DNA of 64,000 nt, taken from positions 434,001-498,000 of the forward strand of contig NZ_CP108109.1 in assembly GCF_036199905.1 (NCBI RefSeq), in the 5' to 3' direction. The position numbers and the translations under genes were made by a program. The notes beneath the pieces are model-generated. The model did not search any database and was not told the DNA's origin. It was given only the letters and a program-made list of their open reading frames with translations. Shown piece after piece: positions 14,281-64,000 of this stretch (positions within the stretch are counted from its first letter, which is position 1; every line of letters starts with the position of its first letter). Origin of the DNA: Streptomyces sp. NBC_00223 (lineage in GTDB: Bacteria; Actinomycetota; Actinomycetes; Streptomycetales; Streptomycetaceae).

Positions 14281-14315
14281 GTCAACTCACCCCAAATTTC
14301 TCTGTCCTGGAAGCG

Positions 14316-14344: not shown

Positions 14345-14375
14345 TCCCCGGACCCGGCCCTGAATCGTGTCGGCG

Positions 14376-14620: not shown

Positions 14621-14635
14621 GTATATCCGGTATAC
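14621..14635. promoter_or_regulatory. GTATA-N5-TATAC inverted repeat between lasso operon and regulator
   Basis: Perfect 5-bp arms (14621-14625 and 14631-14635) centred 20 bases before the regulator's ATG and 120 bases before precursor A. The position suits an operator or the -10 region of the regulator gene. A role in cluster control is inferred. Confidence 0.4.
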
Positions 14636-14648
14636 GAGGCGGGCACCG

Positions 14649-47595: not shown

Positions 47596-48726
47596 TTACA
47601 CCACGTCGTAGTCGACGCTCACCGCGTCGGAGGTGGGGACCGCTTGGCAGGTGAGGATGTAGTCCTCGGCTGATTCCTGCGCGGTGAGGGTGTAGTTCGT
47701 GCGCATCGAGGCCGTGCCGGAGACGACCTTCGCGCGGCAGGTCGCGCATACGCCCGAGCGGCAGGAGAAGGGGAGTTCGGGGCGGATCGACAGGGCGGCC
47801 TCGAGGATGGTCTGGCCGGGCGTCGTCCGGACCGTGGACGTACGGCCCTCCAGGCGTACCGACAGCTCCGTGCCCCCGGCGGCAACCGCATCGTCCCCAG
47901 CGACGTCCGCGGGCGGCGCGGTGAGCGGTCCCGCGTGGAAGAGCTCCGTACGTACCGACGCGGCCGGCACCCCCGCCCGTTCCAGCGCCTGGCCGGCCCC
48001 GGTCACCATCGCGTACGGGCCGCAGAGGAACCACTCGTCCACCAGCGCGGGCGGCAGCAGGGAGGTGAGCACGCGGTCGAGGACGTCGGCGTCGAGGCGG
48101 CGGCCGGCCGGGCCGATGAGATGGGCCTCGCGGGAGAAGAAGTGGACGAGTTGGAGGCGGGGGCCGTAACGGTCCTTGAGGTCGGCCAGTTCCTCCATGA
48201 ACATCGCCGAGCGCATCGTACGGTTGCCGTACAGCACGGTGAAGACACTGTCCGGCTCGACCGCCAACGCCTCGGCCACCAGGGACAGTACGGGGGTGAT
48301 GCCGGAACCGGCCGCCACCGCCGCGTAACGCCGGGCCCGGCCGGGGGCGACGGGAGTGGTGAACCGGCCCTCGGGCGGCCGCAGTTCGAGCCGGTCGCCC
48401 GGGGTGAGCCGCTGGTGGACCCAGGAGGAGAAGCGCCCGCCGGTCACCGCGCGTACGCCCACCCGCAGTTCGCCCTCGCGGCGCAGGGCCTCGGGCGTGG
48501 AGCAGACCGAGTACGTGCGGCGCGGCGACTCGCCGTCCACTTCGGCGCGTACGGTCACGAACTGGCCGGGCGAGAAGGCGAAGCGCTCACGCAGGGGCTC
48601 GGGCACCCACAGTGTGACGGCCACCGCGCTCCCGTCGTCCGCCACCGGGGTGACCGCCGTAACTTCCAACGGGTGGAAGCCTGTTCGCGCGGCCACCGGC
48701 GGCAGGGTCGCCGTCTCGGCGCTCAT
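47596..48726 (-). CDS. paaE: phenylacetyl-CoA epoxidase reductase PaaE
   Basis: A 376-residue reductase with an FAD domain (FSPGQFVTVRAEVDGESPRR, TYSVCSTPE), an NAD(P) domain (RRYAAVAAGSGITPVLSLVA, EWFLCGPYAMVTGAGQAL) and a C-terminal plant-type [2Fe-2S] ferredoxin with CRSGVCATCRAKV and a later Cys in YILTCQAVP. PaaE delivers electrons from NADPH to the diiron site of PaaA. It is the last gene of the compact minus-strand operon A-B-C-D-E; its ATG overlaps the paaD stop (TGATG). Confidence 0.95.
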   Translation of the reverse strand: MSAETATLPPVAARTGFHPLEVTAVTPVADDGSAVAVTLWVPEPLRERFAFSPGQFVTVRAEVDGESPRRTYSVCSTPEALRREGELRVGVRAVTGGRFSSWVHQRLTPGDRLELRPPEGRFTTPVAPGRARRYAAVAAGSGITPVLSLVAEALAVEPDSVFTVLYGNRTMRSAMFMEELADLKDRYGPRLQLVHFFSREAHLIGPAGRRLDADVLDRVLTSLLPPALVDEWFLCGPYAMVTGAGQALERAGVPAASVRTELFHAGPLTAPPADVAGDDAVAAGGTELSVRLEGRTSTVRTTPGQTILEAALSIRPELPFSCRSGVCATCRAKVVSGTASMRTNYTLTAQESAEDYILTCQAVPTSDAVSVDYDVV

Positions 48727-49349
48727 CAGTGCTCCTTGAGATGGTCGAAGGGTTCGCGGCAGGACCGGCAGCGCCACAGCGCCTTGCAGGCGGTGGAGCC
48801 GAAACGGGTGACCTCCTCGGTGTCCGCCGCGCCGCAGCGGGGGCAGGGCGGTACGGCGACGGCGAGCGGCAGCAGCCGGCGGCCGTGCGGCGCGGCGGCT
48901 CCGGGGGCAGCGGGTACGGCGCCGCGCGCGACCGGCGGGGCGATGCCCGCGGCGGCGAGCTTGGCGCGTGCCGCGGGGCCGATCCAGTCGGTGGACCAGG
49001 CCGGCGACCACACCGTTTCGACCCGCACCTCGGGGTAGCCGGCGGCGAGTACGGCCGTACGGATGTCCGCGCGGATCACGTCCATCGCCGGGCAGCCGGT
49101 GTAGGTGGGGGTGACGGTGACGACGGGTACGCCGTCCGGCAGGACGGCCACGGACCGCAGGATGCCCAGTTCCTCCAGGGACAGCACGCGGATCTCCGGG
49201 TCGCGCACGGTGGACAGCACTTCGCGCAGTCGCCCGGCGGGGTCCCCGTACGCCAGGGGCGCCCGGCCCCCCACGCCCACCTCGCCCACCTCGCCCACCT
49301 CGTCCACCGGAGACGCCGCCCGCGCCCCGCCCGCCGGAATCCGCGTCAC
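48726..49349 (-). CDS. paaD: PaaD, iron-sulfur assembly-type protein of the epoxidase operon
   Basis: A 207-residue PaaD/DUF59 (MIP18-like) protein: LREVLSTVRDPEIRVLSLEE, VTVTPTYTGCPAMDVIRADI, and a C-terminal zinc-ribbon-like part with CPRCG and CRSCREPF. PaaD is needed for maturation of the diiron epoxidase. GTG at 49349 overlaps the paaC stop (GTGA). The N-terminal 30 residues carry tandem GEVGEVGEVG-type repeats. Confidence 0.92.
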   Translation of the reverse strand: MTRIPAGGARAASPVDEVGEVGEVGVGGRAPLAYGDPAGRLREVLSTVRDPEIRVLSLEELGILRSVAVLPDGVPVVTVTPTYTGCPAMDVIRADIRTAVLAAGYPEVRVETVWSPAWSTDWIGPAARAKLAAAGIAPPVARGAVPAAPGAAAPHGRRLLPLAVAVPPCPRCGAADTEEVTRFGSTACKALWRCRSCREPFDHLKEH

Positions 49350-50176
49350 CACGTCACCCCGGGGTGCGCGCGGTGCAGCGCCTGCATCTCCGCCAGCAGC
49401 GGGCCGAACGACTCGGTGTGCACACCCCGACGCCCGCCCGTCGGGGTCCACTTGTCGTCGGCGATGCTCAACGTGGCTGCTGTCAACACCCGTTGGACTT
49501 CGTTCAGCCACTCCTCGCGCAGCGCCGCCGGGTCCACGCCCACCCCCTCGGCCGCCACCCGCGCGTACAACGGGTCGCCGGCGAACAGATCGTGGGTGTA
49601 CGGCCAGACCGCCGCGACGGCGTCCCGCATCCGGCGGTGGGACTCCTCGGTGCCGTCGCCGAGCCGTTCGGTCCAGGCGGCGGCGTGGTCGAGGTGGTAG
49701 ACGCTCTCCTTGACGGCCTTGGCGGCGAGCGCGGCCAGTACCGGGTCCTGTGAGCCGGACAGCCGCTCGTACAGCAGCCGTTGGTAGGCGGCGAGGAAGA
49801 GCAGCTTGGCGATGGAGTGCGCGAAGTCGCCGTTGGGCAGCTCCACCAGCTGGACGTTGGTGAACTCCCGCTCCTCGCGCAGAAAGGCCAAGGCGTCCTC
49901 GTCACGGCCCCGGCCCTCCAGCGCGCCGGCGTGGCCCAGCAGCGTACGGGCCTGGCCCAGCAGGTCGAGCGCGATGTTCGCCAGCGCCACGTCCTCTTCC
50001 AACTGCGGTGCGTACGTGCACCATTGGGCCAGCCGCTGGGCGGCGATCAGCGCGTCGTCGGCGAGCCGCAGGACGTACGGGTACGTGGACGCGGCCCCGG
50101 CGGCGGGCGCGGTGTCCGGCGCACTCGCGGTGTCCGCTACGGCCCCGGGCGCCCCGGAGCGGGCGGGCGACGTCAC
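49346..50176 (-). CDS. paaC: phenylacetyl-CoA epoxidase structural subunit PaaC
   Basis: A 276-residue ferritin-like protein: RLADDALIAAQRLAQWCTYA, PQLEEDVALANIALDLLGQA, LRNxVx-type YHLDHAAAWTERLGDGTEES. PaaC pairs with PaaA in the alpha-beta heterodimer and lacks the diiron site. The first 30 residues are Ala/Pro-rich and unconserved. It overlaps paaB by four bases. Confidence 0.94.
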   Translation of the reverse strand: MTSPARSGAPGAVADTASAPDTAPAAGAASTYPYVLRLADDALIAAQRLAQWCTYAPQLEEDVALANIALDLLGQARTLLGHAGALEGRGRDEDALAFLREEREFTNVQLVELPNGDFAHSIAKLLFLAAYQRLLYERLSGSQDPVLAALAAKAVKESVYHLDHAAAWTERLGDGTEESHRRMRDAVAAVWPYTHDLFAGDPLYARVAAEGVGVDPAALREEWLNEVQRVLTAATLSIADDKWTPTGGRRGVHTESFGPLLAEMQALHRAHPGVTW

Positions 50177-50460
50177 AGGTGCTCAATCCCTTCGGGAAGC
50201 TCGAAGAACGTGGGGTGCCGGTAGGTCTTGTCGGCCGCCGGGTCGAAGAAGGGGTCCTTCTCGTCCGGGCTGGAGGCGACGACGGCGTCGGCCGGCACCA
50301 CCCACAGTGAGACGCCCTCGCCGCGCCGGGTGTACAGATCGCGGGCGTTGCGCAGCGCCAGGTGCGCGTCGGGGGCGTGCAGGCTCCCGGCGTGGGTGTG
50401 CGCGAGCCCGCGCCGGGCCCGTACGAAGACCTCCCACAGCGGCCAGTCGCGCTCGCTCAT
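50173..50460 (-). CDS. paaB: phenylacetyl-CoA epoxidase subunit PaaB
   Basis: A 95-residue Paa[56 protein letters not shown]. Small bridging subunit of the epoxidase complex, full family length. Overlaps paaA and paaC by four bases each. Confidence 0.95.
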
Positions 50461-51638: not shown

Positions 51639-51706
51639 CACCAGTCTCCTTCCGCCAGTAGCCGCACCGTATTTCCTCCGCTGACCTGGGCAGTCGCGGC
51701 AGTCAG

Positions 51707-51742
51707 CTTGCTGCCAGTGGTGCGCGGGCGGGCGGCAGCAAG
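51707..51742. promoter_or_regulatory. inverted repeat in the divergent paaA / ligase promoter region
   Basis: CTTGCTGCC at 51707-51715 and its exact complement at 51734-51742, separated by 18 bases, in the 183-base gap between two divergent operons. Plausible operator for a regulator controlling both arms; no regulator gene is visible in the locus. Confidence 0.4.
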
Positions 51743-51821
51743 ATGTCAGTGGCCGTCGTCCGCCTCCCGGCACTCCCCCAGCATGTGACCACCACAGGAG
51801 TCAGCGAGGGGAGTGGACGAC

Positions 51822-53375
51822 GTGCCCAGGAGCAAGGGCTTCTACATCGGCTTGATGTTCGACCGCGCCGCGCGGCGGCACGCCGCGGCACCGGTCGTAC
51901 TCGACACCCCGTTGCAGCTGTCGCCGCAGGACGGCACCACGGTGACGGTCGGCCGACTGGCTGAACTCGTAAGGGAGTTGGCGGGTCGGCTGGTGACCGC
52001 CGGGGTACGGCCGGGCGACCGGGTCGCCGTCTACAAGACCAACAACTTCGACATCGCGCTGCTGGCCGCCGCGGTCCAGCGGGCCGGCGCGGTCCCCGCG
52101 CTGTTCTCACCGATGCTCACCGGCGAGACGGTCAGTGGGCTGCTGGAACGCCTGGACTCGCCGTGGCTGCTGACCGACGCGGACAAGTTCACCGCCACCG
52201 GGCTCGACGCCTCCGCCGCGCGCGGGGTGCTGCTGGTCGCGGGCGAGGAGCTGCCCGGCACCCAGTCGCTGAGCCGCCACCGGGCGGCCTCGCTGCGCGG
52301 CACGTCGGTGCCCGGACCGCACGAGCCGGGTCTGATCAGCCACACCTCGGGGACGACCGGACTGCCCAAGCTGGTCGTGCAGACGCCCAACGCGCTCTAC
52401 CACCGGCTGTGGCTCCAGAAGGTCGTCGGCTCCTGGGTGTGGCGGCACGAGACCGTCGCCCTCGCCGTCACCTTCGTCCACGCCCGCTTCTACAGCGCCC
52501 TCGACCTGGGCATCTCCTACGGCAACCCGCTGCTGATCGCGGTGGACACCGGCCCGGAGAACATCGGGCCGTTCTTCGCCCGGCACCGGCCCGGCGCGGT
52601 GGAGACCCAGCCCAACACCTTCATCGACTGGGAGGTGCTGGCCGATGCCGACGGCCGGCCGCTGTCCAGCGTGCGGTGCTACAGCGCCACCTTCGACGCG
52701 ATGCACCCGCGCACCATCCAGACCCTGCTGGGCGCGTCGGTCCGCCGCGGCCCGAAGTTCATCCAGCTGTACGGGCAGACCGAGACCGGGCCGGTCGCCG
52801 GCCGCTTCTACACCGCGCGCGGGCTGGCCCGGATGGACGGACGGTGTGTGGGCCGGCCGCTGCCCGGGGTGATCCGGATGCGTATCACCGACGACGAGGG
52901 CCGCCGGGTGAAGGCCGGCACGGTGGGTCACATAGAGGTCAACAGCCGTACGCGCGCGATCACTTACCTCAAGGAGGACGCCCGCTTCGCCGAGCAGCAG
53001 AACGGCTCCTGGTGGCGGATGGGCGACCTGGGCTATCTGGACCGGCTGGGGCGGCTGCATCTGCTGGACCGGGAGATCGACTCGGTCGGCACGGTCGACT
53101 CCAACCTGGAGATCGAGGACACCCTGATGGAGCGGCTGCCGGAGCTGCGCGAGGTCGTGGTCCTCGGCGGGCTCGGCCCCGTACCGGTGCCGGTGGTGTG
53201 CACCCGCGGGGACGAGCCGCTGGACGACGAGCGCTGGCGGCTGGCGCTGTCCGGACTGCCGGTACTGGCCGAGGTGGTGCAACTGCCCTTCGACCGGGTG
53301 CCGCGCACCTCGACCTGGAAGGTACGGCGGCCGGAGCTGATCCGGCTGCTGGAGAAGGAAGGCGTCCGTGACTGA
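51822..53375 (+). CDS. ANL-superfamily adenylate-forming enzyme
   Basis: A 517-residue acyl-adenylate ligase. Motifs: LISHTSGTTGLPKLVV (P-loop A3), YGQTETGP (A5), WWRMGDLGYLDRLGRLHLLD (A7-A8), and the catalytic lysine in PRTSTWKVRRPELI. It is not a canonical PaaK (which is about 430 residues with other motifs). In the cremeomycin locus an ANL enzyme of this general class (CreM) uses nitrite to diazotise an aryl amine, so a diazotase role is possible beside the CreE/CreD pair; aryl-CoA ligase is the alternative. First gene of the plus-strand operon. GTG at 51822 with GAGGGGAG. Confidence 0.85.
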   Translation: MPRSKGFYIGLMFDRAARRHAAAPVVLDTPLQLSPQDGTTVTVGRLAELVRELAGRLVTAGVRPGDRVAVYKTNNFDIALLAAAVQRAGAVPALFSPMLTGETVSGLLERLDSPWLLTDADKFTATGLDASAARGVLLVAGEELPGTQSLSRHRAASLRGTSVPGPHEPGLISHTSGTTGLPKLVVQTPNALYHRLWLQKVVGSWVWRHETVALAVTFVHARFYSALDLGISYGNPLLIAVDTGPENIGPFFARHRPGAVETQPNTFIDWEVLADADGRPLSSVRCYSATFDAMHPRTIQTLLGASVRRGPKFIQLYGQTETGPVAGRFYTARGLARMDGRCVGRPLPGVIRMRITDDEGRRVKAGTVGHIEVNSRTRAITYLKEDARFAEQQNGSWWRMGDLGYLDRLGRLHLLDREIDSVGTVDSNLEIEDTLMERLPELREVVVLGGLGPVPVPVVCTRGDEPLDDERWRLALSGLPVLAEVVQLPFDRVPRTSTWKVRRPELIRLLEKEGVRD

Positions 53376-53901
53376 CACCGGTCACCGGCCGTCGGCCGCC
53401 GTGGAGTTGGGCGTCGGCGTCCCCACCGGCGAGCCGGGCCTCGCCGTCCCCACCGGCGAGCCGGGCCTCGGCGCCCCCGACCACGATCCCGGCCTCAGCC
53501 TTCCCGCCGACGAGCCCACCGTCCCCGTCGGCGCCGGCGAACTGGGCGCCCGCCTCGGCATCGAGCTGATCTCCGCCGAACCCGGCCGCGTCGTCGGCTC
53601 GATGCCCGTGCTCGGCAACACCCAGCCCTTCGGGGTGCTGCACGGCGGCGCCTCCTGCGTACTGGCCGAGTCCCTTGCCTCGATCGGCGCCTGTCTGCAC
53701 TTCGCGGCCGACGGCGGTGTCGGAGTGGGCACCGAGATCAACGCCAGTCACCACCGGCCGGTGTCCACCGGGCGGGTCACGGGTGTGGCCACCGCCGTAC
53801 GTCTGGGCCGTACCCACGCCACGTACGAGATCGCCGTCGAGGACGAGCAGGGCCGCCGGGTGTGCAGCGCCCGGATGACCTGCGTGCGTTCGCGGGCCTG
53901 A
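53368..53901 (+). CDS. hotdog-fold thioesterase (PaaI-like)
   Basis: A 177-residue protein. The hotdog domain covers residues 55-175: TQPFGVLHGGASCVLAESLA holds the H92-G-G signature and a later acidic residue (AES), then VGVGTEINASHHRPVSTGRV. PaaI-type thioesterases hydrolyse stalled aryl-CoA thioesters. The first 50 residues are a low-complexity linker with two exact 'VPTGEPGL' repeats, encoded by a tandem DNA repeat. It overlaps the preceding gene by 8 bases. Confidence 0.87.
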   Translation: MTDTGHRPSAAVELGVGVPTGEPGLAVPTGEPGLGAPDHDPGLSLPADEPTVPVGAGELGARLGIELISAEPGRVVGSMPVLGNTQPFGVLHGGASCVLAESLASIGACLHFAADGGVGVGTEINASHHRPVSTGRVTGVATAVRLGRTHATYEIAVEDEQGRRVCSARMTCVRSRA

Positions 53902-53921
53902 GAGATCGAGGAGATCAGCCC

Positions 53922-55559
53922 ATGGTGCCGCCGACCCCCTCCGCCCACCGGGACACCTTCGCCCGCGACGGCCTGCCGCCCGCCGAGCAGTGGCCCGAAC
54001 TGGTCACCGATCTGCCCGAACTGCGCTATCCGCGGCTGCTCAACTGCGCCCACGAGCTGCTGGACACCACCATCGAGCGGTACGGCGCCGACCGGCCCGC
54101 CCTGTACGACCAGGACGGGCGGGAGTGGAGCTACGCCCGACTGCGCGACCGCGCCAACCGGATCGCCCATCTGCTGGTCGACGACCACGGTCTGGTGCCC
54201 GGCAACCGGGTGCTGCTGCGCGGCCCCAACTCCCCCTGGCTGGTGGCCTGCTGGCTGGCCGCGCTGAAGGCCGGGGCCGTCGTGGTGACGACGATGCCGC
54301 TGCTGCGGGCCGGTGAGCTGAAGCAGATCACCGACCGCGCCCAGGTCCAACTCGCCTTGTGCGAGCAGGACTTGACCGGTGAGCTGGAGGCCGCCGGCTT
54401 CCCCCGCGCACGCATCCTCACCTACACCGGCGCCGACGGGACGGACGGCGGGCCCGCCCCGCTGGCGGCCGACCGCTCCCCGCACTTCACCGCCGTGCGG
54501 ACCGCCGCAGACGACGTGGCGCTGATCGCCTTCACCTCCGGCACCAGCGGGGAGCCCAAGGCGACGCTGCACTTCCACCGCGATGTGCTCGCCATCGCCG
54601 ACACGTTCAGCGCGCATGTGCTGCGGCCCGACCCCGACGACGTGTTCATCGGCAGCCCGCCGCTGGCCTTCACCTTCGGCCTGGGCGGTCTGGTGGTCTT
54701 CCCGCTGCGGGCCGGCGCCTCGGCCGTCCTGCTGGAGAAGGCGCCGCCCGACGCGCTCTTCCGCGCCGTGGAACGGCACCGCGCGAGCGTGCTCTTCACC
54801 GCACCCACCGCCTACCGCAAGGCACTTGACGGGATCAAGGACTACGACCTGTCCTCGCTGCGGCGCTGTGTCTCGGCGGGCGAGGCGCTGCCCGCGTGGG
54901 TGTGGCGGGCCTTCCACGACGCCACCGGTCTGCGGATCATCGACGGTCTGGGCTCGACCGAGATGCTGCACATCTTCATCTCCGCGGCGGACGACGACAT
55001 CCGGGTGGGCGCCACCGGACGGCCGGTGCCCGGCTTCCGGGCCCGGGTCGTCGACGAGGGCGGCGCCGAGCTGCCCGACGGCACCCCCGGCCGGCTCGCC
55101 GTCCAGGGCCCGACCGGCTGCCGCTACCTCAGCGACGAGCGGCAGCGCACCCACGTACGGGACGGCTGGAACATCACCGGCGACATCTACATCCGGGACA
55201 CCGAAGGTTACTTCTGGTACCAGGCGCGTTCCGACGACATGATCGTGACCTCCGGCTACAACGTGGCCGCCCCCGAGGTCGAGCAGGCCGTCATACGGCA
55301 TCCCGCGGTGGCCGACTGCGGTGTCGTCGGCGTCCCCGACGACGAGCGCGGAGCCCTCGTCAAGTCCTATGTCGTACTGGCCCCCGGGCACTCTCCGTCC
55401 GGGCAACTGGCCAAGGACATACAGGAGTTCGTCAAGGCCACGATCGCTCCCTACAAGTACCCCCGACTGGTGGAATTCGTCACCGCTCTTCCGTCGAGCG
55501 CGACCGGAAAGCTCCAGCGCTCCGTGCTGCGGGATTCGGTGATGGCGCGCAGCGCGTGA
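53922..55559 (+). CDS. aminobenzoate-CoA ligase-like (benzoate-CoA ligase family)
   Basis: A 545-residue ANL enzyme resembling 2-aminobenzoate/benzoate-CoA ligases: PELRYPRLLNCAHELLDTTI, LIAFTSGTSGEPKATLHFHR (A3), IIDGLGSTEMLHIFISAADD (A5), GWNITGDIYIRDTEGYFWYQ (A7), SSATGKLQRSVLR with the catalytic lysine. It would make anthraniloyl- or benzoyl-CoA. With the anthranilate synthase next door the likely acid is anthranilate. ATG at 53922 has GAGGAG upstream; the frame opens earlier, within the preceding gene. Confidence 0.88.
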   Translation: MVPPTPSAHRDTFARDGLPPAEQWPELVTDLPELRYPRLLNCAHELLDTTIERYGADRPALYDQDGREWSYARLRDRANRIAHLLVDDHGLVPGNRVLLRGPNSPWLVACWLAALKAGAVVVTTMPLLRAGELKQITDRAQVQLALCEQDLTGELEAAGFPRARILTYTGADGTDGGPAPLAADRSPHFTAVRTAADDVALIAFTSGTSGEPKATLHFHRDVLAIADTFSAHVLRPDPDDVFIGSPPLAFTFGLGGLVVFPLRAGASAVLLEKAPPDALFRAVERHRASVLFTAPTAYRKALDGIKDYDLSSLRRCVSAGEALPAWVWRAFHDATGLRIIDGLGSTEMLHIFISAADDDIRVGATGRPVPGFRARVVDEGGAELPDGTPGRLAVQGPTGCRYLSDERQRTHVRDGWNITGDIYIRDTEGYFWYQARSDDMIVTSGYNVAAPEVEQAVIRHPAVADCGVVGVPDDERGALVKSYVVLAPGHSPSGQLAKDIQEFVKATIAPYKYPRLVEFVTALPSSATGKLQRSVLRDSVMARSA

Positions 55560-55680
55560 TCCGAGGGCCCTTCCGGTGCCGGGCGGCGCGACCCGCCCGG
55601 CCTCCGGGGCGCCCGCCGGGGCCCGCGCCCCGGGCTCCGCCCTTCCCTTCCCGACATCCGTGCAGGAAAGGCCCGTTGCC

Positions 55681-57987
55681 ATGTCACTGCTGGAGACCTC
55701 GACGGCCGCCGCGGCCGGCACCGCAGAAGCGGACGGAACCGCGGAAACAGCGAGCACCGTAGAAACAGCAGGCACCGCGGAAGCCGGCGGCCCGTCCGGT
55801 ACCGCGGACCGGCTCTGGACCACCCCCGCGGGCGTCCGCGTCCACCGCGTCAGCGAACCGGCCGGCCCCGCCCGCCTCGTCCGCGACGGCCTGGCGCGCG
55901 CCCTCGACCAGCGCCGCGGCATGCTGATCCACCGCGGCCACGACCGGGTCGTCGGCTACGTGGACCCGCCGCTCGAAGTGACGGTACGCGGCGATCTGAT
56001 CGCCGTGAGCGCCCTGAACCACCGCGGTCAGGTGCTGCTGCACGCCCTGGAACCCTTATTGGCCCGCTTGTTGACCCTCACCGAGAGCGGTCCTGGCACG
56101 GTCAGCGGCCGGGTGCCGGCCGGCGACCGGGTCTTCGCGGAGGAGGACCGCACCCGCCACGCCGGTGCCTTCGCCCCGGTCCGCGCCCTGCTCACGGCCA
56201 TGTCCGGCCCGCGGGACGAACTGCTGGGCCTGTACGGCGCGTTCGGCTACGACCTGATCTTCCACCTCGATCCCGTCCCCCTGCGTCAGCCGCGCGACCC
56301 GGGCGACCGCGACCTGGTGCTCCATCTGCCCGACGAGATCGTCGAGTTCGACCTGCGCCACGACCGGGCGGTACGCCACCGCTACGAGTTCGCCGCGGCC
56401 GGCCGCACCACCGAGGGCCTGCCCCGGACCACTCCCGCCCGCCCCTTCGTACCCGGCGTCCCCGACGCGCCGCGCGACCACGCGCCCGGCGAGTACGCCG
56501 AGGTGGTGACCCGCGCCAAGTCGCTCTTCCGCTCCGGCGACCTCTTCGAGGTGGTGCCCGGCCAGGTCTTCCGCCGCGCCTGCGCCCAGCCGCCCTCCGA
56601 ACTCTTCCGGCGGCTGCGCGCGTCCAACCCGGCCCCGCACAGCCTGCTGGCCAACCTCGGCGAGGGCGAGTACCTGGTCGGCGCCTCCCCCGAGATGTTC
56701 GTCAGGGTCCGGCACCGGGCGGCCGACGCCCGGGGCGGCCTGGTCGTGGAGTCCTCGCCGATCAGCGGCACGATCGCCCGCGGCGCCGACGTCCTGGAGG
56801 ACGCCGAGCGGGTCCGCGACCTGCTGGGCTCGGTCAAGGAGGAGTCCGAGCTGACCATGTGCACGGACGTGGACCGCAACGACAAGGCACGGGTGTGCGT
56901 GCCCGGCACCGTACGGGTCACCGCGCGCCGCCGGATCGAGATGTACTCCACGCTCATCCACACCGTCGACCATGTCGAGGGCCTGCTCTCCCCCGGCCGG
57001 GACGCGCTGGACGGCTTCCTCGCGCACCTGTGGGCGGTCACCGTCACCGGCGCCCCCAAGCTCGCCGCCGTGGAGTTCGTCGAGCGCGAGGAGCGGTCCG
57101 CCCGCCGCTGGTACGGCGGCGCGGCCGGGGTGCTGGCCTTCGACGGCACGCTGGACACCGTGCTGACGCTGCGGACGATCCAGGTGCGCGACGGGGTGGC
57201 CACCGTACGGGCCGGCGCGACGCTGCTGCACGACTCCGCGCCCGAGGCGGAGGAGGCCGAGACCGAACTGAAGGCCAAGGCGCTGCTGCGGGTCCTGGAG
57301 GCGCCGGCCGCACCGTACTCCCCGGGCCCCGGACGCGCCGACGGGAACGGCACCGACGCCGGGCGCCCCGGCGAGGGCCTGCGGGTGCTGATGGTCGACC
57401 ACCGGGACTCCTTCGCGCACACCCTGGCCGACTATCTGCGGCAGACCGGCGCCCGTGTGAGCACCTACCGGGCCGGCCGCCATCTGCCGCTGCTGACCAG
57501 TGAACGCCCCGATCTGCTCGTCCTGTCCCCCGGCCCGGGCCGGCCCGCCGACTTCGACCTGGCGGGCACCTTCGCCGAGGCCGAGAAGCTGGACCTCCCC
57601 GTCTTCGGGGTGTGCCTGGGCCTCCAGGGCCTGATCGAGTACTTCGGCGGCACCCTGTCCGTCCTGGACCTCCCGATGCACGGCAAGCCCTCGCGGGTCA
57701 GGGTCACCGACCCCGGCAGCGCGCTGCTGGCCGGGCTGCCGGCGGAGTTCGACGCGGGCCGCTACCACTCGCTGTACACTCCCACCGGCGACGTACCGGA
57801 CGAGCTGCGGGTGACCGCCGAGACCGACGACGGCGTGGCCATGGTCGTGGAGCACCGTGAACGACCGCTGGCCGCCGTCCAGTTCCACCCCGAATCGATC
57901 ATGACCACGCGTGGCGGGGCCGGCCATCTGATCATCGCCAACGCCGTCGCCTCGCTGACCCGCCTCGCCCGGGCCGGCCGGCCGTGA
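55681..57987 (+). CDS. fused anthranilate/ADIC synthase, TrpE-TrpG type
   Basis: A 768-residue fusion. Residues 60-550 are the chorismate-binding component: LGLYGAFGYDLIFHLDPVPL, FEVVPGQVFRRACAQPPSEL, SSPISGTIARGADVLEDAER and ELTMCTDVDRNDKARVCVPG, VTGAPK. Residues 570-768 are the class I glutaminase with C645 in FGVCLGLQGL and VQFHPESIM. The layout is shared by Streptomyces TrpEG and PhzE; I cannot tell anthranilate from aminodeoxyisochorismate synthase by eye, but a separate isochorismatase is absent, favouring anthranilate. The first 45 residues are Thr/Ala-rich. Confidence 0.9.
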   Translation: MSLLETSTAAAAGTAEADGTAETASTVETAGTAEAGGPSGTADRLWTTPAGVRVHRVSEPAGPARLVRDGLARALDQRRGMLIHRGHDRVVGYVDPPLEVTVRGDLIAVSALNHRGQVLLHALEPLLARLLTLTESGPGTVSGRVPAGDRVFAEEDRTRHAGAFAPVRALLTAMSGPRDELLGLYGAFGYDLIFHLDPVPLRQPRDPGDRDLVLHLPDEIVEFDLRHDRAVRHRYEFAAAGRTTEGLPRTTPARPFVPGVPDAPRDHAPGEYAEVVTRAKSLFRSGDLFEVVPGQVFRRACAQPPSELFRRLRASNPAPHSLLANLGEGEYLVGASPEMFVRVRHRAADARGGLVVESSPISGTIARGADVLEDAERVRDLLGSVKEESELTMCTDVDRNDKARVCVPGTVRVTARRRIEMYSTLIHTVDHVEGLLSPGRDALDGFLAHLWAVTVTGAPKLAAVEFVEREERSARRWYGGAAGVLAFDGTLDTVLTLRTIQVRDGVATVRAGATLLHDSAPEAEEAETELKAKALLRVLEAPAAPYSPGPGRADGNGTDAGRPGEGLRVLMVDHRDSFAHTLADYLRQTGARVSTYRAGRHLPLLTSERPDLLVLSPGPGRPADFDLAGTFAEAEKLDLPVFGVCLGLQGLIEYFGGTLSVLDLPMHGKPSRVRVTDPGSALLAGLPAEFDAGRYHSLYTPTGDVPDELRVTAETDDGVAMVVEHRERPLAAVQFHPESIMTTRGGAGHLIIANAVASLTRLARAGRP

Positions 57988-58093
57988 CGCGGACCGGCGC
58001 CGCCGCCGCTGCCGGCGCCGCCGCGCGGAACGCCCTGCCCGGCCCGGCGGGCACTCGTCCGGGTCCGCGGACCCGTGGAACAGGAGAGCCCGA

Positions 58094-60115
58094 GTGACCG
58101 GCACACATCTGCGCGTAGGACTCGTCGGCATGGGACCGCGGGGGCTGTCGGTGCTCGAACGGCTGTGTGCCAACGAGCGCAAGTCCCCCTCCCGCGACGC
58201 CGTCACCGTCCATGTCGTGGACCCCTACCCGCCCGGCGCCGGCCGGGTGTGGCGCACCGCCCAGTCCCGGCATCTGCTGATGAACACCGTCGCCTCGCAG
58301 ATCACCCTCTTCACCGACGACAGCGTCCGGATCGAGGGTCCCGTCGAGTCCGGCCCCAGCCTGTACGAGTGGGCCCGCTCACCGGCGCTGCTGAGCCACC
58401 CGGACGAGGACCCGCCCGGCGACCACGACGAACGGGTGCGCGCCGAGGCCCGCGCGCTCGGGCCCGACGACTACCCCACCCGCGCCTTCTACGGCCACTA
58501 CCTGGAGGCCGTCCACCGTTACCTCACCGCCGGCGCTCCCGCGCACGTCACCGTCGTCACCCACCGCGGCCTCGCCCTCGCCCTGGACGACGACGGCACC
58601 GGCGATCGCCTCCAGACGCTCACCCTGGAGGACGGCACCCGCCTCACCGGTCTGCACGCGGTGGTGCTCGCCCAGGGCCATGTGCCGGCCCGGCCCGACG
58701 CCGGGGAGGAGGAGTTCGCCCGGCGGGCGAGGGAGGCCGGACTGACGTACATCGCCCCGGCCAACCCCGCCGATGTGGACCTGGCCGCGATCGGCCCCGG
58801 CGCGGCCGTACTCCTGCGCGGCCTGGGCCTGAACTTCTTCGACCACATGGCGCTGTTCACCCACGGCCGCGGCGGCTCCTTCGAGCGGGCCGGCGACCGC
58901 CTGGTCTACCGCCCCTCCGGCCGCGAGCCGCGGCTGTACGCCGGATCGCGGCGAGGGGTGCCCTACCACGCGCGCGGCGAGAACGAGAAGGGAGCGCACG
59001 GCCGCCACCAGCCCGCCCTGCTGACCGTCGACACGGTCCGACGCCTGCGCGAACGCGTCCGGGGCGGCGGCCGGGTCACCTTCCGCGAGGACCTGTGGCC
59101 GCTGATCGCCACGGAGGTCGAGAGCGTCTACTACGGCACCCTGCTCACCTCCCTCGGCCGTGACGCCGAGCGGCCCGCGCTGGTCGCGCGCTACCTGGCC
59201 GCCCGGCGGGACGACGAGCGGCGGGCGCTGCTGGACTCGTACGGCATCGGCGCCGCAGACCGCTGGGAGTGGGCGGATCTGGCCCGCCCGCACGGCGACG
59301 TCACGTTCACCGGCCCCGGCGACTTCCACGCGTGGCTGCTCGACCGGCTGCGCCGCGATGTCCTCGACGCCCGCGCCGGGAACGTCGGCGGTCCCCTCAA
59401 GGCCGCCCTCGACGTGCTGCGCGACCTGCGCAACGAGATACGGCTCGCCGTCGACCACGCGGGGATAGACGGCGGGTCCTACCGCACGGAACTGCGGGAC
59501 TGGTACACCCCGCTCAACGCTTTCCTGTCCATCGGCCCGCCGACCTCCCGTATCGAGGAGATGACGGCCCTGATCGAGGCCGGGGTGCTGACCGTGCTCG
59601 GTCCCGGGGTACGGGTGCGGCTGGACGCGGACACACCGTCCTTCGTCGCCGAGTCCGATGTCCCGGGCAGCCGGGTGCGGGCCGGGGTCCTCATCGAGGC
59701 CCGGCTGCCCGAGCCGGACCTGCGCCGCACCGCGGACCCGCTGCTGCGCCATCTGCTGAGCACCGGTCAGTGCCGGCCCTACACGATCCCGGCCGGGTCC
59801 GGTGAGCCCTACGAGAGCGGCGGCCTGGCCGTCACCGAGCGGCCGTACCGCCTGCTGGACGCCAACGGCCGGGCCCACCCCAGGCGTTACGCCTACGGTG
59901 TCCCCACCGAGGCGGTGCACTGGGTCACCGCGGCGGGCATCCGCCCCGGCGTCGACTCGGTCACCCTCGGCGACTCCGACGCCATCGCCCGCGCCGTTCT
60001 CTCCTCGCGGTCCGCCCGGAACGACCCTCCGCCGGGCGCCCCGGGCGCGGCGGAAGGTACAAACGGTACCGACGGCAGCCAGACGGACAGTGACCTGAAC
60101 GGGGTGTACGCATGA
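58094..60115 (+). CDS. CreE-like FAD-dependent monooxygenase (aspartate to nitrosuccinate)
   Basis: A 673-residue FAD/NAD(P)-binding protein. The Rossmann motif is VGLVGMGPRGLSVLERLCAN (8-27), followed by VHVVDPYPPGAGRVWRTAQS and HLLMNTVASQITLF; ALLVxGLGLNFFDHMALFTH type sequence is near 250. This domain set (FAD_NAD_binding_9) and length are those of CreE/FzmM, which oxidise L-aspartate to nitrosuccinate. The directly overlapping lyase gene (ATGA at 60112) is CreD-like, which strengthens the assignment. GTG at 58094. Confidence 0.82.
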   Translation: MTGTHLRVGLVGMGPRGLSVLERLCANERKSPSRDAVTVHVVDPYPPGAGRVWRTAQSRHLLMNTVASQITLFTDDSVRIEGPVESGPSLYEWARSPALLSHPDEDPPGDHDERVRAEARALGPDDYPTRAFYGHYLEAVHRYLTAGAPAHVTVVTHRGLALALDDDGTGDRLQTLTLEDGTRLTGLHAVVLAQGHVPARPDAGEEEFARRAREAGLTYIAPANPADVDLAAIGPGAAVLLRGLGLNFFDHMALFTHGRGGSFERAGDRLVYRPSGREPRLYAGSRRGVPYHARGENEKGAHGRHQPALLTVDTVRRLRERVRGGGRVTFREDLWPLIATEVESVYYGTLLTSLGRDAERPALVARYLAARRDDERRALLDSYGIGAADRWEWADLARPHGDVTFTGPGDFHAWLLDRLRRDVLDARAGNVGGPLKAALDVLRDLRNEIRLAVDHAGIDGGSYRTELRDWYTPLNAFLSIGPPTSRIEEMTALIEAGVLTVLGPGVRVRLDADTPSFVAESDVPGSRVRAGVLIEARLPEPDLRRTADPLLRHLLSTGQCRPYTIPAGSGEPYESGGLAVTERPYRLLDANGRAHPRRYAYGVPTEAVHWVTAAGIRPGVDSVTLGDSDAIARAVLSSRSARNDPPPGAPGAAEGTNGTDGSQTDSDLNGVYA

Positions 60116-61590
60116 CCGGCCCGACCCTCCCTCCCCCTCCGCCCGGCCCGGCGCCGGGTGAAAGCCCCGGCCCGGGGGCCGGCGTCGCGCCGGACACCGG
60201 GTTGCTGTCACCCGTGCGGGCCGGAACCCCGGTGGAGGCGGCGGTCGACGACGCCGCCTGGCTGCGGGCGATGCTCGACGCCGAGGCGGCCCTCGCCCGC
60301 GCCCAGGCGCGGCTGGGCACGGTCCCGGAGGCGGCCGCCCGCGCGATCACCGAGGCGGCCGCCGCGTTCCCGCCCGACCCGCGTCCCCTCGCGCTGACCG
60401 CGCGGGAGACCGCCAACCCGGTCGTGGGCCTGGTCCAGGCGCTGACCCGCGCGGTCGCCGAACGCGCTCCGGACGCCGCCGAGTACGTGCACCGCGGCTC
60501 CACCAGCCAGGACATCTTCGACACCGGCGCCATGCTGGTCGCCTCGCGGGCGCTGCGCGTCGTCCGCGCGGACCTGGCCCGCGCGGCCGACGCCCTGGCC
60601 CGGCTGGCCGCCGACCACCGCGACACCACCATGGCCGGCCGTACCCTCGCGCTGCACGCGGTGCCCACCACCTTCGGTCTCAAGGCGGCCGGCTGGCGCG
60701 CGCTGGTGCTGGACGCGCTGGACCGTACCGACCGGCTCGTGGCGAGCGGGCTGCCCGTGGCCCTGGGCGGCGCCGCCGGCACCAGCGCCGGGTATCTGGA
60801 GTACGCCGACCTGGAGGCCGCCGGCCGCTCCGCCACCGGTCCCGGCCCCCGCGCGGACGGCGGTGTCTACCTCGACCGCCTCACCGACGCCTTCGCCGAG
60901 GAGACCGGGCTGGCCCGCCCCACCCTGCCCTGGCACTCCCTGCGCACCCCCCTTGCCGACCTCGGTGCCGTACTGGCCTTCACCACCGGGGCCCTGGGCA
61001 AGATCGCCGTCGACGTGCAGACCCTGGCCCGTACCGAGATCGGGGAACTCGCCGAGCCCGGACCGGCCGGGCGCGGGGTGTCCTCGGCCATGCCGCACAA
61101 GCGCAATCCCGTCCTGGCCGCGCTGATCCGCAGCGCCGCGCTCCAGGTGCCCGCGTACGCGACGGTGCTGACGCAGTCCCTGCTCACCGAGGACGAGCGG
61201 TCCGGCGGGGTCTGGCAGGCGGAGTGGCAGCCGCTGCGCGAGTGTCTGCGGCTGACCGGCGGCGCCGCGCACACGGCGGTCGAACTCCTGGAGGGTCTGG
61301 AGGTCCGGGTCGACCGCATGCGGCACAACCTCGGTCTGACCGGCGGCCAGATCGTCGCCGAACGGCTCGCCGCCCGCCTCACCCCGCTGCTCGGCCGGCT
61401 GCCCGCCCGGCAGTTGCTCACCCGGGCCTCCGCGCTGGCCGCCAGGGACGGCCGCCCGCTCGGCGACGTCCTGGCCGAGGACGCGGAGATCAAGGGCACG
61501 CTGTCGGCCGCCGAACTGGACGCCCTGCTCGACCCGGCGGGCTACACCGGCGCGGCGGGCCCCCTGGTGGACCGCGCCCTGCGTCCCTGA
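60112..61590 (+). CDS. CreD-like nitrosuccinate lyase (fumarase/aspartase superfamily)
   Basis: A 492-residue lyase. T131-S-Q-D134 in HRGSTSQDIFDTGAMLVASR and the flexible signature loop GVSSAMPHKRNPVLAALIRS (about 321-340) define the superfamily; the C-terminal domain resembles 3-carboxymuconate cycloisomerase. CreD homologues split nitrosuccinate into fumarate and nitrous acid. Alternatives are adenylosuccinate lyase or PcaB, but no other purine or protocatechuate gene is here. It is translationally coupled to the flavoprotein gene. The first 35 residues are Pro-rich. Confidence 0.83.
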   Translation: MTGPTLPPPPPGPAPGESPGPGAGVAPDTGLLSPVRAGTPVEAAVDDAAWLRAMLDAEAALARAQARLGTVPEAAARAITEAAAAFPPDPRPLALTARETANPVVGLVQALTRAVAERAPDAAEYVHRGSTSQDIFDTGAMLVASRALRVVRADLARAADALARLAADHRDTTMAGRTLALHAVPTTFGLKAAGWRALVLDALDRTDRLVASGLPVALGGAAGTSAGYLEYADLEAAGRSATGPGPRADGGVYLDRLTDAFAEETGLARPTLPWHSLRTPLADLGAVLAFTTGALGKIAVDVQTLARTEIGELAEPGPAGRGVSSAMPHKRNPVLAALIRSAALQVPAYATVLTQSLLTEDERSGGVWQAEWQPLRECLRLTGGAAHTAVELLEGLEVRVDRMRHNLGLTGGQIVAERLAARLTPLLGRLPARQLLTRASALAARDGRPLGDVLAEDAEIKGTLSAAELDALLDPAGYTGAAGPLVDRALRP

Positions 61591-61765
61591 CCCCGCTTTC
61601 CCGACCCCGGCCCGCGTCGTTCCTCCGGTCCCTGATCCCCGTCGCCCGCGACCCCGCACGGAACCGCCCCGACTGCTGAGGCCGCGCCGAAGGCGGCTCT
61701 CATCCGGCCGTCCCCACGCCACGGAAGGAAGCGCGACGGCGGGCCGGACGTCGCCCACCCCACCC
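61591..61765. other. short gap before the DAHP synthase gene
   Basis: No gene. GGAAGGAAGC at 61722-61731 is too far from the ATG at 61766 to be its ribosome binding site. Confidence 0.3.
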
Positions 61766-63007
61766 ATGACCGTCACCGAAGCGGGCTCACCGGATCTGCG
61801 GCCCGTCCCCGGCGCGCAGCAGCCCCGCTGGCCCGACCCCTTGGCGCTGCGCCGGGTCCTCGCCGACCTCGCGGCCGCCCCGCCGCTGACCTCGCCCGCG
61901 CGCAGCGACCGGCTGCGCGAGCGCCTGGCGGCCGTGGCCCGCGGTGAGGCGTTCCTGCTCCAGGGCGGGGACTGCGCGGAGACCTTCGACGGCAACGGCC
62001 CCGAGCGGGTGCGCGGCAAGCTGCGGACCCTGCGGGAGATGGCCGGTGTGCTCACCGCGGCCACGGGCGTGCCGGTGGTGCGGGTCGGGCGGATCGCCGG
62101 GCAGTACGCCAAGCCGCGGTCCGCGCCGACCGAGACCCGCGGCGGGCTGACCCTGCCCTCCTACCGGGGCGACGCGGTCAACGGCCCGGACTTCACCGCG
62201 TCGGCCCGCACCCCCGACCCCGGGCGGCTGCGGCGGATGTACGACGCCTCAGCGGAGACGATGAGTGTGCTGCGGGCGCTGTCCCCGGACGGCGGGCCCG
62301 GCCCGGGGCGGGCCGTACCGGACGACCTCGCCCAGGACGCGGCGGACGCGGAGTTGTTCACCAGCCACGAGGCACTGCTCCTGGAGTACGAGCACGCCCT
62401 GACCCGGATCGCCTCCGGCACCGGCCGCCCGTACGGGCTGTCCGGGCACATGCTGTGGATCGGCGAGCGGACCCGGGGGCTCGACGGCGAGCACATCGCG
62501 TTCGCCGCGCGGATCGGCAACCCGGTCGGGGTCAAGCTCGGGCCGACCGCGACCGCCGACGAGGCCCTCGCGCTGATCGACCGGATCGATCCTCGGCGTG
62601 AACCGGGCCGGCTCACCCTGATCACGCGCATGGGCGCCGACCGGGTGCGCGATCTGCTGCCCGGTCTGGTCGAGAAGGTCACGGCCTGCGGCGCCAGGGT
62701 GGTGTGGGTCTGCGACCCGATGCACGGCAACACCGTCCAGGCCCCCACCGGCCACAAGACCCGCGTGTACGACACGGTGCTCGACGAGATCCGGGGCTTC
62801 TTCGAGGTCCACCGCGCGCTGGGCACCCACCCCGGCGGCGTCCATCTGGAACTCACCGGCGAGGACGTCACCGAGTGCGTCGGCGGCCCGGAAGGGCTCG
62901 GCTTCGCCGACCTCCCGCTGCGGTACGAGACCGCCTGCGACCCCCGGCTCAATCGCGCCCAGGCGCGCGAACTGTCCCACGCGGTGGCCGAGTTACTGGC
63001 CGGCTGA
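61766..63007 (+). CDS. class II DAHP synthase
   Basis: A 413-residue class II (plant-type) 3-deoxy-D-arabino-heptulosonate 7-phosphate synthase: FLLQGGDCAETFDGNG with metal ligand C70, VVRVGRIAGQYAKPRSAPTE, GLSGHMLWIGERTRGLDGEH, VGVKLGPTA, VVWVCDPMHGNTVQAP, GGVHLELTGEDVTECVGG. It commits carbon to chorismate. Secondary-metabolite copies of this type, as in phenazine loci, are feedback-insensitive and lack the N-terminal regulatory segment; this one is shorter than the primary enzyme of about 450 residues. Last gene of the plus-strand operon. Confidence 0.93.
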   Translation: MTVTEAGSPDLRPVPGAQQPRWPDPLALRRVLADLAAAPPLTSPARSDRLRERLAAVARGEAFLLQGGDCAETFDGNGPERVRGKLRTLREMAGVLTAATGVPVVRVGRIAGQYAKPRSAPTETRGGLTLPSYRGDAVNGPDFTASARTPDPGRLRRMYDASAETMSVLRALSPDGGPGPGRAVPDDLAQDAADAELFTSHEALLLEYEHALTRIASGTGRPYGLSGHMLWIGERTRGLDGEHIAFAARIGNPVGVKLGPTATADEALALIDRIDPRREPGRLTLITRMGADRVRDLLPGLVEKVTACGARVVWVCDPMHGNTVQAPTGHKTRVYDTVLDEIRGFFEVHRALGTHPGGVHLELTGEDVTECVGGPEGLGFADLPLRYETACDPRLNRAQARELSHAVAELLAG

Positions 63008-63928: not shown

Positions 63929-64000
63929 CGATTCTCCAAAAAGCGCTGCGTGAAAAGGGAGTCGTGAAAGGGAGTGTCGGACAGGTGGTTCAGTCGTGCG
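63929..64000. other. window end
   Basis: Upstream region of the SDR gene; nothing else seen. Confidence 0.3.

What the first reader, a model, noticed from the sequence alone, without database searches (positions are those of the whole stretch)
47596..63007. Divergent locus joining nitrous-acid biosynthesis, anthranilate supply, aryl-CoA ligation and the PaaABCDE ring epoxidase
Seen: complete paaABCDE on the minus strand and, divergently, two ANL enzymes, a hotdog thioesterase, a TrpEG fusion, a CreE-like flavoprotein overlapping a CreD-like lyase, and a class II DAHP synthase. Known: CreE and CreD of the cremeomycin pathway make nitrous acid from L-aspartate; PaaABCE epoxidises phenylacetyl-CoA; DAHP synthase plus TrpEG is a typical dedicated anthranilate supply. 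Inference: anthranilate could be diazotised by the first ANL enzyme (as CreM does) or activated as anthraniloyl-CoA and epoxidised by the Paa complex, giving a diazo, N-N-bonded, deaminated or ring-expanded product. I know of no characterised pathway with this set. paaZ, paaG, paaF and paaH are absent, so it is not the catabolic operon.
Basis: partly seen in the sequence, partly recalled or inferred. Interest (0 to 1): 0.92.

Follow-up and report, generated by a model that had tools for sequence, protein, structure and literature searches.

The report
Anthranilate epoxidase–diazotase gene cluster
A set of fifteen neighbouring bacterial genes, whose core is found together in seven other actinomycetes, encodes anthranilate synthase, a ring-epoxidase-type complex with an altered active site, nitrous-acid-pathway enzymes and a CreM-type enzyme, and is predicted to hydroxylate anthranilate and then likely turn its amino group into a diazo group that would be lost as nitrogen gas.

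Summary
In detail: every gene named is present, and CreE-, CreD- and CreM-type assignments survive tests. The cluster runs on to about 66865 with an AvaA7-related reductase, MFS transporter and MocR regulator. The arms belong together: PaaABCDE, ANL1, ANL2 and reductase are in 7 of 7 relatives examined with ANL1 at 64% or more; 76 of 76 loci below that show no PaaA in the DNA held; in 394 family genomes cluster-type ANL1 and PaaA occur in the same 3. PaaA keeps iron ligands and lysine bridge, but Phe108 is Ile in 8 of 8, against Phe in 31 of 31 catabolic-type. ANL2 has FTFGxGG like the anthranilate-CoA ligase 4wv3. Best model (inferred): anthranilate, anthraniloyl-CoA, Paa oxygenation, hydrolysis to an aminophenol acid, diazotisation with cluster-made HNO2, probably N2 loss. 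Weakest link: the reductase, nearest to stand-alone SDRs. Product unknown. New variant of diazotisation-dependent biosynthesis; no description found.

The parts
47596..48726 (-). PaaE-type reductase (FAD, NAD, 2Fe-2S)
   Evidence: Pfam Fer2/NAD_binding_1/FAD_binding_6; TIGR02160 369 bits, cut-off 420.8; 53-72% identical in 6 relatives, and annotated as a 2Fe-2S protein in L126
48726..49307 (-). PaaD-type Fe-S assembly protein
   Evidence: Zn_ribbon_PaaD and FeS_assembly_P
49346..50176 (-). PaaC-type structural subunit
   Evidence: PF05138 303.6 bits
50173..50460 (-). PaaB-type bridging subunit
   Evidence: PF06243 139.8 bits
50457..51641 (-). PaaA-type di-iron epoxidase subunit with altered substrate pocket (start 51641 or 51638)
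   Evidence: TIGR02156 458.7 bits, cut-off 280; start codon and upstream GGAAGGAG read from sequence; residue comparison
51642..51821 (.). intergenic stretch between the divergent arms, presumed promoter region
   Evidence: sequence read; no motif test made
51822..53375 (+). ANL1, CreM-clade diazotase (predicted)
   Evidence: 54-56% identical to ANL genes in cremeomycin-like loci L016/L018/L020; 26% to those near over-cut-off AvaA7 genes in L188/L189; P-loop, YGQTE Glu, A8 Asp and A10 Lys kept
53368..53901 (+). hotdog-fold thioesterase, 8-nt overlap with ANL1 if the first GTG is used
   Evidence: 4HBT; TIGR00369 100.2 bits over cut-off 36.6; EntH model 100.8 bits, under its cut-off 237
53922..55559 (+). 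ANL2, aryl-CoA ligase, predicted anthraniloyl-CoA ligase
   Evidence: TIGR02262 353.7 bits, cut-off 375.25; best PDB match 4wv3 anthranilate-CoA ligase; FTFGLGG in 8 of 8
55681..57987 (+). TrpEG fusion, anthranilate synthase
   Evidence: PRK13566 935.6 bits (cut-off 645), TIGR01815 873.2 (739.15)
58094..60115 (+). CreE-type L-aspartate N-hydroxylase (nitrosuccinate synthase)
   Evidence: PDB 8cp2, 673.4 bits, the only PDB sequence matched at E <= 0.001; identified as aspartate N-hydroxylase in PMC10404684
60112..61590 (+). CreD-type nitrosuccinate lyase
   Evidence: NF052556 760.9 bits, cut-off 650
61766..63007 (+). class II DAHP synthase
   Evidence: PF01474 536.5 bits
63077..63928 (-). Red, SDR related to the diazo reductase AvaA7 (role predicted)
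   Evidence: NF058621 204.6 bits, cut-off 400; present in 8 of 8 clusters, cut short by the end of the stretch in L011; tree
63990..64000 (-). end of the MFS transporter gene that runs to position 65276 outside the window; MocR-type regulator follows at 65366-66865 (+)

Best explanation
This is a co-conserved actinomycete gene cluster that is predicted to make anthranilate, activate it as anthraniloyl-CoA, oxygenate its ring with a PaaABCDE-type complex whose substrate pocket differs from the catabolic one, and then likely diazotise the amino group with nitrous acid that its own CreE/CreD pair would make. Inferred order: (1) DAHP synthase and TrpEG supply anthranilate. (2) ANL2 makes anthraniloyl-CoA. 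(3) PaaABC(D)E epoxidises the ring; an epoxide next to the amino-bearing carbon would collapse to a hydroxyanthraniloyl-CoA, most simply the 3-hydroxy isomer. (4) The hotdog thioesterase frees the acid, an ortho-aminophenol like the CreM substrate. (5) CreE oxidises L-aspartate to nitrosuccinate and CreD releases HNO2; ANL1 activates it with ATP and diazotises the amine. (6) The AvaA7-related SDR would replace the diazo group by hydride, releasing N2 and leaving a hydroxybenzoate-type acid, exported by the MFS protein under MocR control. Shown by sequence: gene set, co-conservation, family assignments, PaaA pocket changes, ANL2 signature. Inferred: substrates, step order, regiochemistry, product. 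Step 6 is the least certain.
For: Co-conservation: PaaABCDE, ANL1, ANL2 and Red occur together in the window and in 7 of 7 relatives examined whose ANL1 is at least 64% identical (L011-L014; G121 and G050; plasmid NZ_CP107949.1 = L126). 0 of 76 loci with ANL1 at 57% or less show PaaA in the DNA held, up to 10 kb each side. In the same 394 family genomes, ANL1 of 60% or more and PaaA of 79% or more both occur only in G000, G121 and G050, although 374 of 394 carry a PaaA at E <= 1e-145. Nitrous acid: CreD over its equivalog cut-off; CreE's one PDB match is 8cp2. Diazotase: ANL1 groups with CreM-position genes of cremeomycin-like loci. PaaA: ligands E42, E72, H75, D126, E155, H158 and bridge residues K68, E49 kept in 8 of 8; F108I, I107F, S105L, G122A, V125T, Q159H in 8 of 8 and 0 of 31 catabolic-type; Phe108 orients the phenylacetyl ring (PMC4498308, passages). 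ANL2: FTFGLGG in 8 of 8; 4wv3 has FTFGTGG, benzoate-CoA ligases FAYGLGN. A further Paa-containing locus in this genome sits beside Trp dioxygenase and kynureninase genes, an anthranilate source.
Against: No substrate or product was measured. Red scores half the AvaA7 cut-off; its nearest relatives seen (L205-L207, 60-65% identical) are SDRs with no ANL1, CreE, CreD, PaaA, TrpEG or ANL2 match in the 20 kb around them. Thioesterase, TrpEG and DAHPS are not found in L012, nor CreE/CreD in L014, so these functions in the cluster are dispensable or supplied elsewhere. Benzoyl-CoA would need a similar pocket change to anthraniloyl-CoA, so PaaA alone does not separate them. The further locus's PaaA keeps Phe108, and its kynureninase is not found on the related contig of G063. 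That the FTFGxGG stretch lines the aryl pocket is recalled, not tested; elsewhere (SAGEALP, GSTEMLHIF) ANL2 looks more like the benzoate ligases than 4wv3.
Confidence: 0.5

Rival explanations
1. Diazotisation would come first: ANL1 diazotises anthranilate itself, Red reduces the diazonium to benzoate, ANL2 makes benzoyl-CoA, and PaaABCE epoxidises benzoyl-CoA as BoxB does; the thioesterase then frees a hydroxybenzoate.
For: Same gene set; ANL2's best family model is the benzoate-CoA ligase family, just under its cut-off; outside the FTFGxGG stretch two motifs look benzoate-ligase-like; a diazotase for an aryl amine without ortho-hydroxyl, SpiA7, is described in PMC11705231 (passages).
Against: ANL2 carries the FTFGxGG stretch of the anthranilate ligase 4wv3, not the benzoate-ligase FAYGxGN; CreM works on an ortho-aminophenol acid; the further Paa locus pairs Paa with an anthranilate source, and no diazotase was seen among its scanned genes.
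Confidence: 0.17
2. The diazo or hydrazine group would be kept: the pathway ends in an ortho-quinone diazide or an N-N product derived from hydroxyanthranilate, and Red reduces something else, for example a ring epoxide, diene or hydrazone.
For: Red is closer to SDRs without diazo neighbours than to AvaA7; cremeomycin, the CreM product, keeps its diazo group.
Against: Red plus those three SDRs group with the AvaA7-type proteins (ultrafast bootstrap 89, FastTree support 0.73), and Red lies in the cluster in 8 of 8 cases.
Confidence: 0.2
3. The Paa arm is an ordinary phenylacetate-catabolic operon that merely lies beside a diazo cluster.
For: PaaA is over the catabolic equivalog cut-off and the iron site is intact.
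Against: The genome has a separate catabolic-type paaA at C1:558709; cluster-type PaaA occurs only with cluster-type ANL1 in 394 genomes; the pocket changes are fixed in 8 of 8 clusters; the Paa genes go with the rest even on a plasmid.
Confidence: 0.03

Closest known systems
ava (avenalumic acid) and cma (p-coumaric acid) clusters, diazotisation-dependent deamination (PMC10777205)
   Same: CreE/CreD nitrous acid, an ANL diazotase and an AvaA7-related SDR; the amino group is likely made only to be removed
   Different: Here the amine comes from anthranilate synthase, not 3,4-AHBA synthase; no type II PKS gene is among those scanned; there is a Paa-type epoxidase, a CoA ligase and a thioesterase; ANL1 is CreM-clade, only 26% identical to the ANL genes near over-cut-off AvaA7 genes, and 97.3 bits to the AvaA6 model (cut-off 975)
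Cremeomycin (cre) pathway
   Same: CreE, CreD and a CreM-type enzyme; predicted ortho-aminophenol acid as substrate
   Different: No 3,4-AHBA synthase, single-component flavin hydroxylase or O-methyltransferase among the scanned genes; oxygenation is predicted to be by a di-iron complex on a CoA thioester
PABA-type clusters with a CreM homologue (for example L077, Streptomyces viridochromogenes DSM 40736)
   Same: Aminobenzoate supply, benzoate-CoA-ligase-family enzyme, ring oxygenase and CreM-clade enzyme; a MocR-type gene in 28 of 73 such loci
   Different: pabA/B/C genes, a flavin monooxygenase instead of Paa, no CreE, CreD or Red match in the DNA held; ligase motif mostly FAYGFGN
PaaABCE phenylacetyl-CoA epoxidase and BoxAB benzoyl-CoA epoxidase
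   Same: All Paa subunits, iron ligands and lysine bridge
   Different: Phe108 region and residues next to two iron ligands are changed; BoxAB was not compared by sequence
AuaEII anthranilate-CoA ligase (PDB 4wv3; the name AuaEII is recalled)
   Same: Best PDB match of ANL2; shares FTFGxGG
   Different: Overall score only slightly above benzoate-CoA ligases (290 against 276 and 270 bits)
Tropolone (trl) clusters
   Same: Secondary use of Paa-type ring epoxidation plus a thioesterase (PMC11110157, passages)
   Different: Those start from phenylacetyl-CoA and need oxepin-CoA hydrolysis; no diazo genes appear in the passages seen

Membership tests
ANS nitrous-acid pathway (CreE/CreD) | aspartate N-hydroxylase of the CreE type | tested here: met
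   673.4 bits to 8cp2, an aspartate N-hydroxylase; no NCBIfam model hit
ANS nitrous-acid pathway (CreE/CreD) | nitrosuccinate lyase of the CreD type | tested here: met
   NF052556 760.9 bits, cut-off 650
ANS nitrous-acid pathway (CreE/CreD) | production of nitrite from L-aspartate | not testable with these tools
   needs an enzyme assay
CreM-type diazotase | sequence clade with ANL genes of cremeomycin-like loci | tested here: met
   54-56% identity to L016/L018/L020 and tree position; L016 and L018 carry 3,4-AHBA-synthase-like pairs (under the BagC/FevH cut-off, over the DHQ-synthase-II family cut-off). The CreM sequence itself was not fetched
CreM-type diazotase | Mg/ATP Glu and other adenylation motifs | tested here: met
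   YGQTE, P-loop, A8 Asp, A10 Lys
CreM-type diazotase | diazotisation of an aryl amine | not testable with these tools
   needs an assay
AvaA6 diazotase equivalog | NF058622 cut-off of 975 bits | tested here: not met
   97.3 bits
AvaA7 denitrifying reductase | NCBIfam NF058621 cut-off of 400 bits | tested here: not met
   204.6 bits; 6 of 394 family genomes hold a protein over the cut-off
AvaA7 denitrifying reductase | same SDR subfamily, sister position to AvaA7 | tested here: inconclusive
   bootstrap 89 and FastTree 0.73 for grouping with AvaA7-type proteins, but only together with three SDRs lacking diazo neighbours
Phenylacetyl-CoA epoxidase (PaaABCE) | all subunits, iron ligands, lysine bridge | tested here: met
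Phenylacetyl-CoA epoxidase (PaaABCE) | Phe108 that orients the phenylacetyl ring | tested here: not met
   Ile in 8 of 8 cluster PaaA, Phe in 31 of 31 catabolic-type
Anthraniloyl-CoA ligase | FTFGxGG stretch as in 4wv3 | tested here: met
   8 of 8; that it sets specificity is recalled, not tested
ava/cma-type cluster | 3,4-AHBA synthase genes and type II PKS | tested here: not met
   none among the genes scanned at 47596-66865

The most novel reading that the evidence does not exclude
The amine would act as a traceless handle: the cluster builds anthranilate so that its amino group directs a di-iron CoA-dependent epoxidase to a neighbouring ring position, then erases that amino group through a diazo intermediate as N2, giving a regioselectively hydroxylated benzoate. 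To my knowledge it would be the first Paa-type arene epoxidase acting on an anthraniloyl thioester.
Probability: 0.3. Interest if true: 0.88.

Novelty: new variant of a known kind. Interest (0 to 1): 0.72.

Why it matters
If right, it joins two chemistries that I found no report of working together: CoA-dependent arene epoxidation and enzymatic diazotisation. It would extend the reported diazotisation-dependent deamination from PKS products to a primary-metabolite amine, give a Paa-type epoxidase with a new substrate, and make testable why actinomycetes add and then remove amino groups. It also points to numerous PABA-type CreM-homologue clusters (73 of 80 loci), whose literature I did not search.

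Tried and rejected
Rejected: Paa arm as a bystander catabolic operon. Rejected as proof: absence of paaZ, since no PaaZ passes the cut-off in the whole genome. Weakened: Red as a certain AvaA7. I first took the NF058621 hit at face value. The family search then showed matches in 118 of 394 genomes at E <= 1e-30, with 6 of 394 over the cut-off. In 20 fetched contexts (examined) ANL1 matches of 80 bits or more were seen in 3: L188 and L189, which hold over-cut-off AvaA7 genes, and L191; L195 had a weak partial match (62 bits); 16 had none. Rejected: phenazine-type supply, because the TrpEG fusion passes anthranilate synthase models. Paper searches bearing on this gene combination: 12 papers, all listed; none; 3 listed; 15 of 55 listed; 1; 2; 10 of 30 listed; none of those listed is presented as describing this set, but I read only the papers cited here. 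sought structural papers; 74 was too broad to help. Not used: structure prediction, fold search, the remaining two protein searches.
Full report
What is there. The window lies at G000:C1:434001-498000 in a 7.96 Mb single-contig genome; its ANL1 relatives are actinomycetes. The locus continues to the right: 63077-63928 (-) is an SDR whose best NCBIfam model is the 3-diazoavenalumate denitrifying reductase (204.6 bits, cut-off 400), then an MFS transporter (63990-65276, -) and a MocR-type regulator (65366-66865, +), mostly or wholly beyond the window. Of five ORFs scanned just left of PaaE, three gave no Pfam family, one a peptidase S51 and one an acetyltransferase.

Nitrous acid. The CreD-like protein passes the nitrosuccinate lyase equivalog cut-off (760.9 against 650). 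The CreE-like protein hits no NCBIfam model but has one PDB relative, 8cp2 at 673.4 bits, which PMC10404684 (passages) identifies as an L-aspartate N-hydroxylase.

Diazotase. A search with ANL1 gave 776 relatives, of which 120 were listed. Three loci (L016, L018, L020) look like cremeomycin clusters, and their ANL genes are 54-56% identical to ANL1. L016 and L018 have a 3,4-AHBA-synthase-like pair: below the BagC/FevH cut-off (684.6 and 438.5 against 750) but above the DHQ-synthase-II family cut-off, with the aldolase partner above its subfamily cut-off. Both also hold CreE. In L018 the ANL gene follows a 3-hydroxybenzoate-6-monooxygenase-like gene and precedes an O-methyltransferase gene. L020 groups with them but was not scanned by family, and no CreE was found in its stretch. 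The ANL genes near over-cut-off AvaA7 genes in L188 and L189, which I take to be AvaA6, are 26% identical to ANL1, and ANL1 scores 97.3 bits on the AvaA6 model (cut-off 975). ANL1 keeps the adenylation motifs, including the YGQTE glutamate. I take that residue to match CreM Glu352, whose mutation abolished product according to PMC11705231 (passages). I did not fetch CreM itself.

Co-conservation. Among the 80 loci, the 4 with ANL1 at 64% or more (L011-L014) all have PaaABCDE, ANL2 and Red; the 76 at 57% or less show no PaaA in the DNA held, up to 10 kb each side and less where contigs are short. Three further copies were examined. G121 has all 15 genes. A linear plasmid, NZ_CP107949.1 (L126), has all 15 by annotation plus a FAD-binding oxidoreductase. 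G050 has the genes rearranged, without MocR in the stretch, with CreE running off the fetched end, so CreD was not seen. Other ANL1 relatives of 64% or more were not examined for context. Gaps told in full: L012 lacks thioesterase, TrpEG and DAHPS; L014 lacks CreE and CreD; L013 shows no MocR; L011 ends inside Red, so MFS and MocR could not be seen. L012, L013 and L014 carry a berberine-bridge-type or BagK/FevA1-like oxidase gene at the place of the plasmid's FAD oxidase, so 4 of 8 clusters have it there. In 394 family genomes ANL1 of 60% or more occurs in 3 including this one, and PaaA of 79% or more in the same 3, while 374 have some PaaA at E <= 1e-145, the next best 73% identical. In 394 genomes drawn from the class only this genome has ANL1 of 60% or more (one other match, 52%).

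A changed epoxidase. The genome has two other PaaA genes. I aligned 8 cluster PaaA, 31 catabolic-type PaaA (30 loci and this genome's own; 'catabolic-type' is my label from sequence), the third PaaA of this genome and E. coli PaaA. The iron ligands Glu42, Glu72, His75, Asp126, Glu155, His158 and the lysine-bridge residues Lys68 and Glu49, as listed in PMC4498308 (passages), are kept in all. [quoted passage not shown] It is Ile in 8 of 8 cluster enzymes and Phe in 31 of 31 others; I107F, S105L, G122A, V125T and Q159H are equally fixed. Residues 125 and 159 are next to two iron ligands. So the iron site is intact and the pocket is changed.

Anthranilate rather than benzoate. ANL2's best PDB match is an anthranilate-CoA ligase (290 bits) over benzoate-CoA ligases (276 and 270). 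The alignments show FTFGTGG in the former and FAYGLGN in the latter; two other motifs (SAGEALP, GSTEMLHIF) are closer to the benzoate ligases. ANL2 has FTFGLGG in 8 of 8 clusters. Of 73 best ligase matches in the other loci, 67 have [FY]AYG[FL]GN, 2 were not aligned there, 4 have other forms, none FTFGLGG. That this stretch lines the aryl pocket is recalled. Those other loci are mostly p-aminobenzoate clusters: in 73 of 80 loci a ligase, a CreM homologue and a flavin monooxygenase each over 38% identical to those of L077 were found. This shared plan of aminobenzoate supply, CoA ligase, ring oxygenase and CreM-type enzyme is why I place oxygenation before diazotisation.

A second pairing of Paa with anthranilate. 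Another locus in this genome (L010, G000:C1:955000-974999) has PaaA and PaaC, PaaB, PaaE and a PaaD-sized ORF, beside Trp 2,3-dioxygenase, an alpha/beta hydrolase and kynureninase, an adenylating enzyme, an ACP-sized ORF and a long gene whose start reads like a ketosynthase (the last read by eye only). G063 has most of it, but the kynureninase was not found on the contig. Its PaaA keeps Phe108 but shares A122 and T125 with the cluster type. It is suggestive support only.

The reductase. NF058621 hits at E <= 1e-30 are in 118 of 394 family genomes, with 6 of 394 over the cut-off. Red's nearest relatives in the sample are SDRs in L205-L207 (60-65%). In the tree, cluster Reds group (bootstrap 92), join L205-L207 (100), and that group joins the AvaA7-type proteins (89; FastTree 0.73). 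By eye, no protein in the alignment shows the YxxxK pair at the expected place (L011 Red is truncated there). So Red is a plausible but unproven diazo reductase. PMC10777205 (parts 1-3 of 4 read) describes the AvaA7 reaction and notes that 72 of 134 ava-like clusters lack their own nitrous-acid genes, which fits L014.

Conclusion. The finding is real, larger than described and coherent. Gene content, co-conservation, the PaaA change and the ANL2 signature are shown; substrates, order and product are inferred. Searches for a published description found none (an open-licence library, some lists capped). Papers seen only in passages: PMC11705231, PMC11429834, PMC13061610, PMC4498308, PMC11110157, PMC3534580, PMC10404684.

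Noticed in passing
L010 (G000:C1:955000-974999), positions 1828-17291: A further PaaABCE set with a PaaD-sized ORF beside Trp 2,3-dioxygenase, alpha/beta hydrolase, kynureninase, an adenylating enzyme with an ACP-sized ORF and long PKS/NRPS-like ORFs (read by eye); most of it is matched in G063 contig C107.
   Followed up: partly
L077 and 72 further loci among L011-L090: A frequent cluster type: pabA, pabB, benzoate-CoA-ligase-family enzyme, CreM homologue, FAD monooxygenase, pabC, two carboxymuconolactone-decarboxylase-family genes, sometimes MocR; no CreE/CreD match in the DNA held. I did not search papers for its product.
   Followed up: partly
L015 (Actinokineospora diospyrosa) 5087-11524: DAHP synthase, PabAB-like fusion, aryl-CoA ligase and CreM homologue in a row, without Paa.
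   Followed up: partly
L191 (G259:C26:23000-42999): A 45% ANL1 relative lies about 6 kb from an AvaA7-related SDR.
   Followed up: no
L012:13537-15087, L013:13739-15286, L014:13632-15173, L126:19268-20794: Four of eight clusters have an extra FAD-dependent oxidase gene after ANL2, so their products may differ.
   Followed up: partly
plasmid NZ_CP107949.1 (L126); G050:C1 about 60 kb from the contig end: The cluster lies on a linear plasmid in one strain and near the contig end in another, which suggests it moves between genomes.
   Followed up: no
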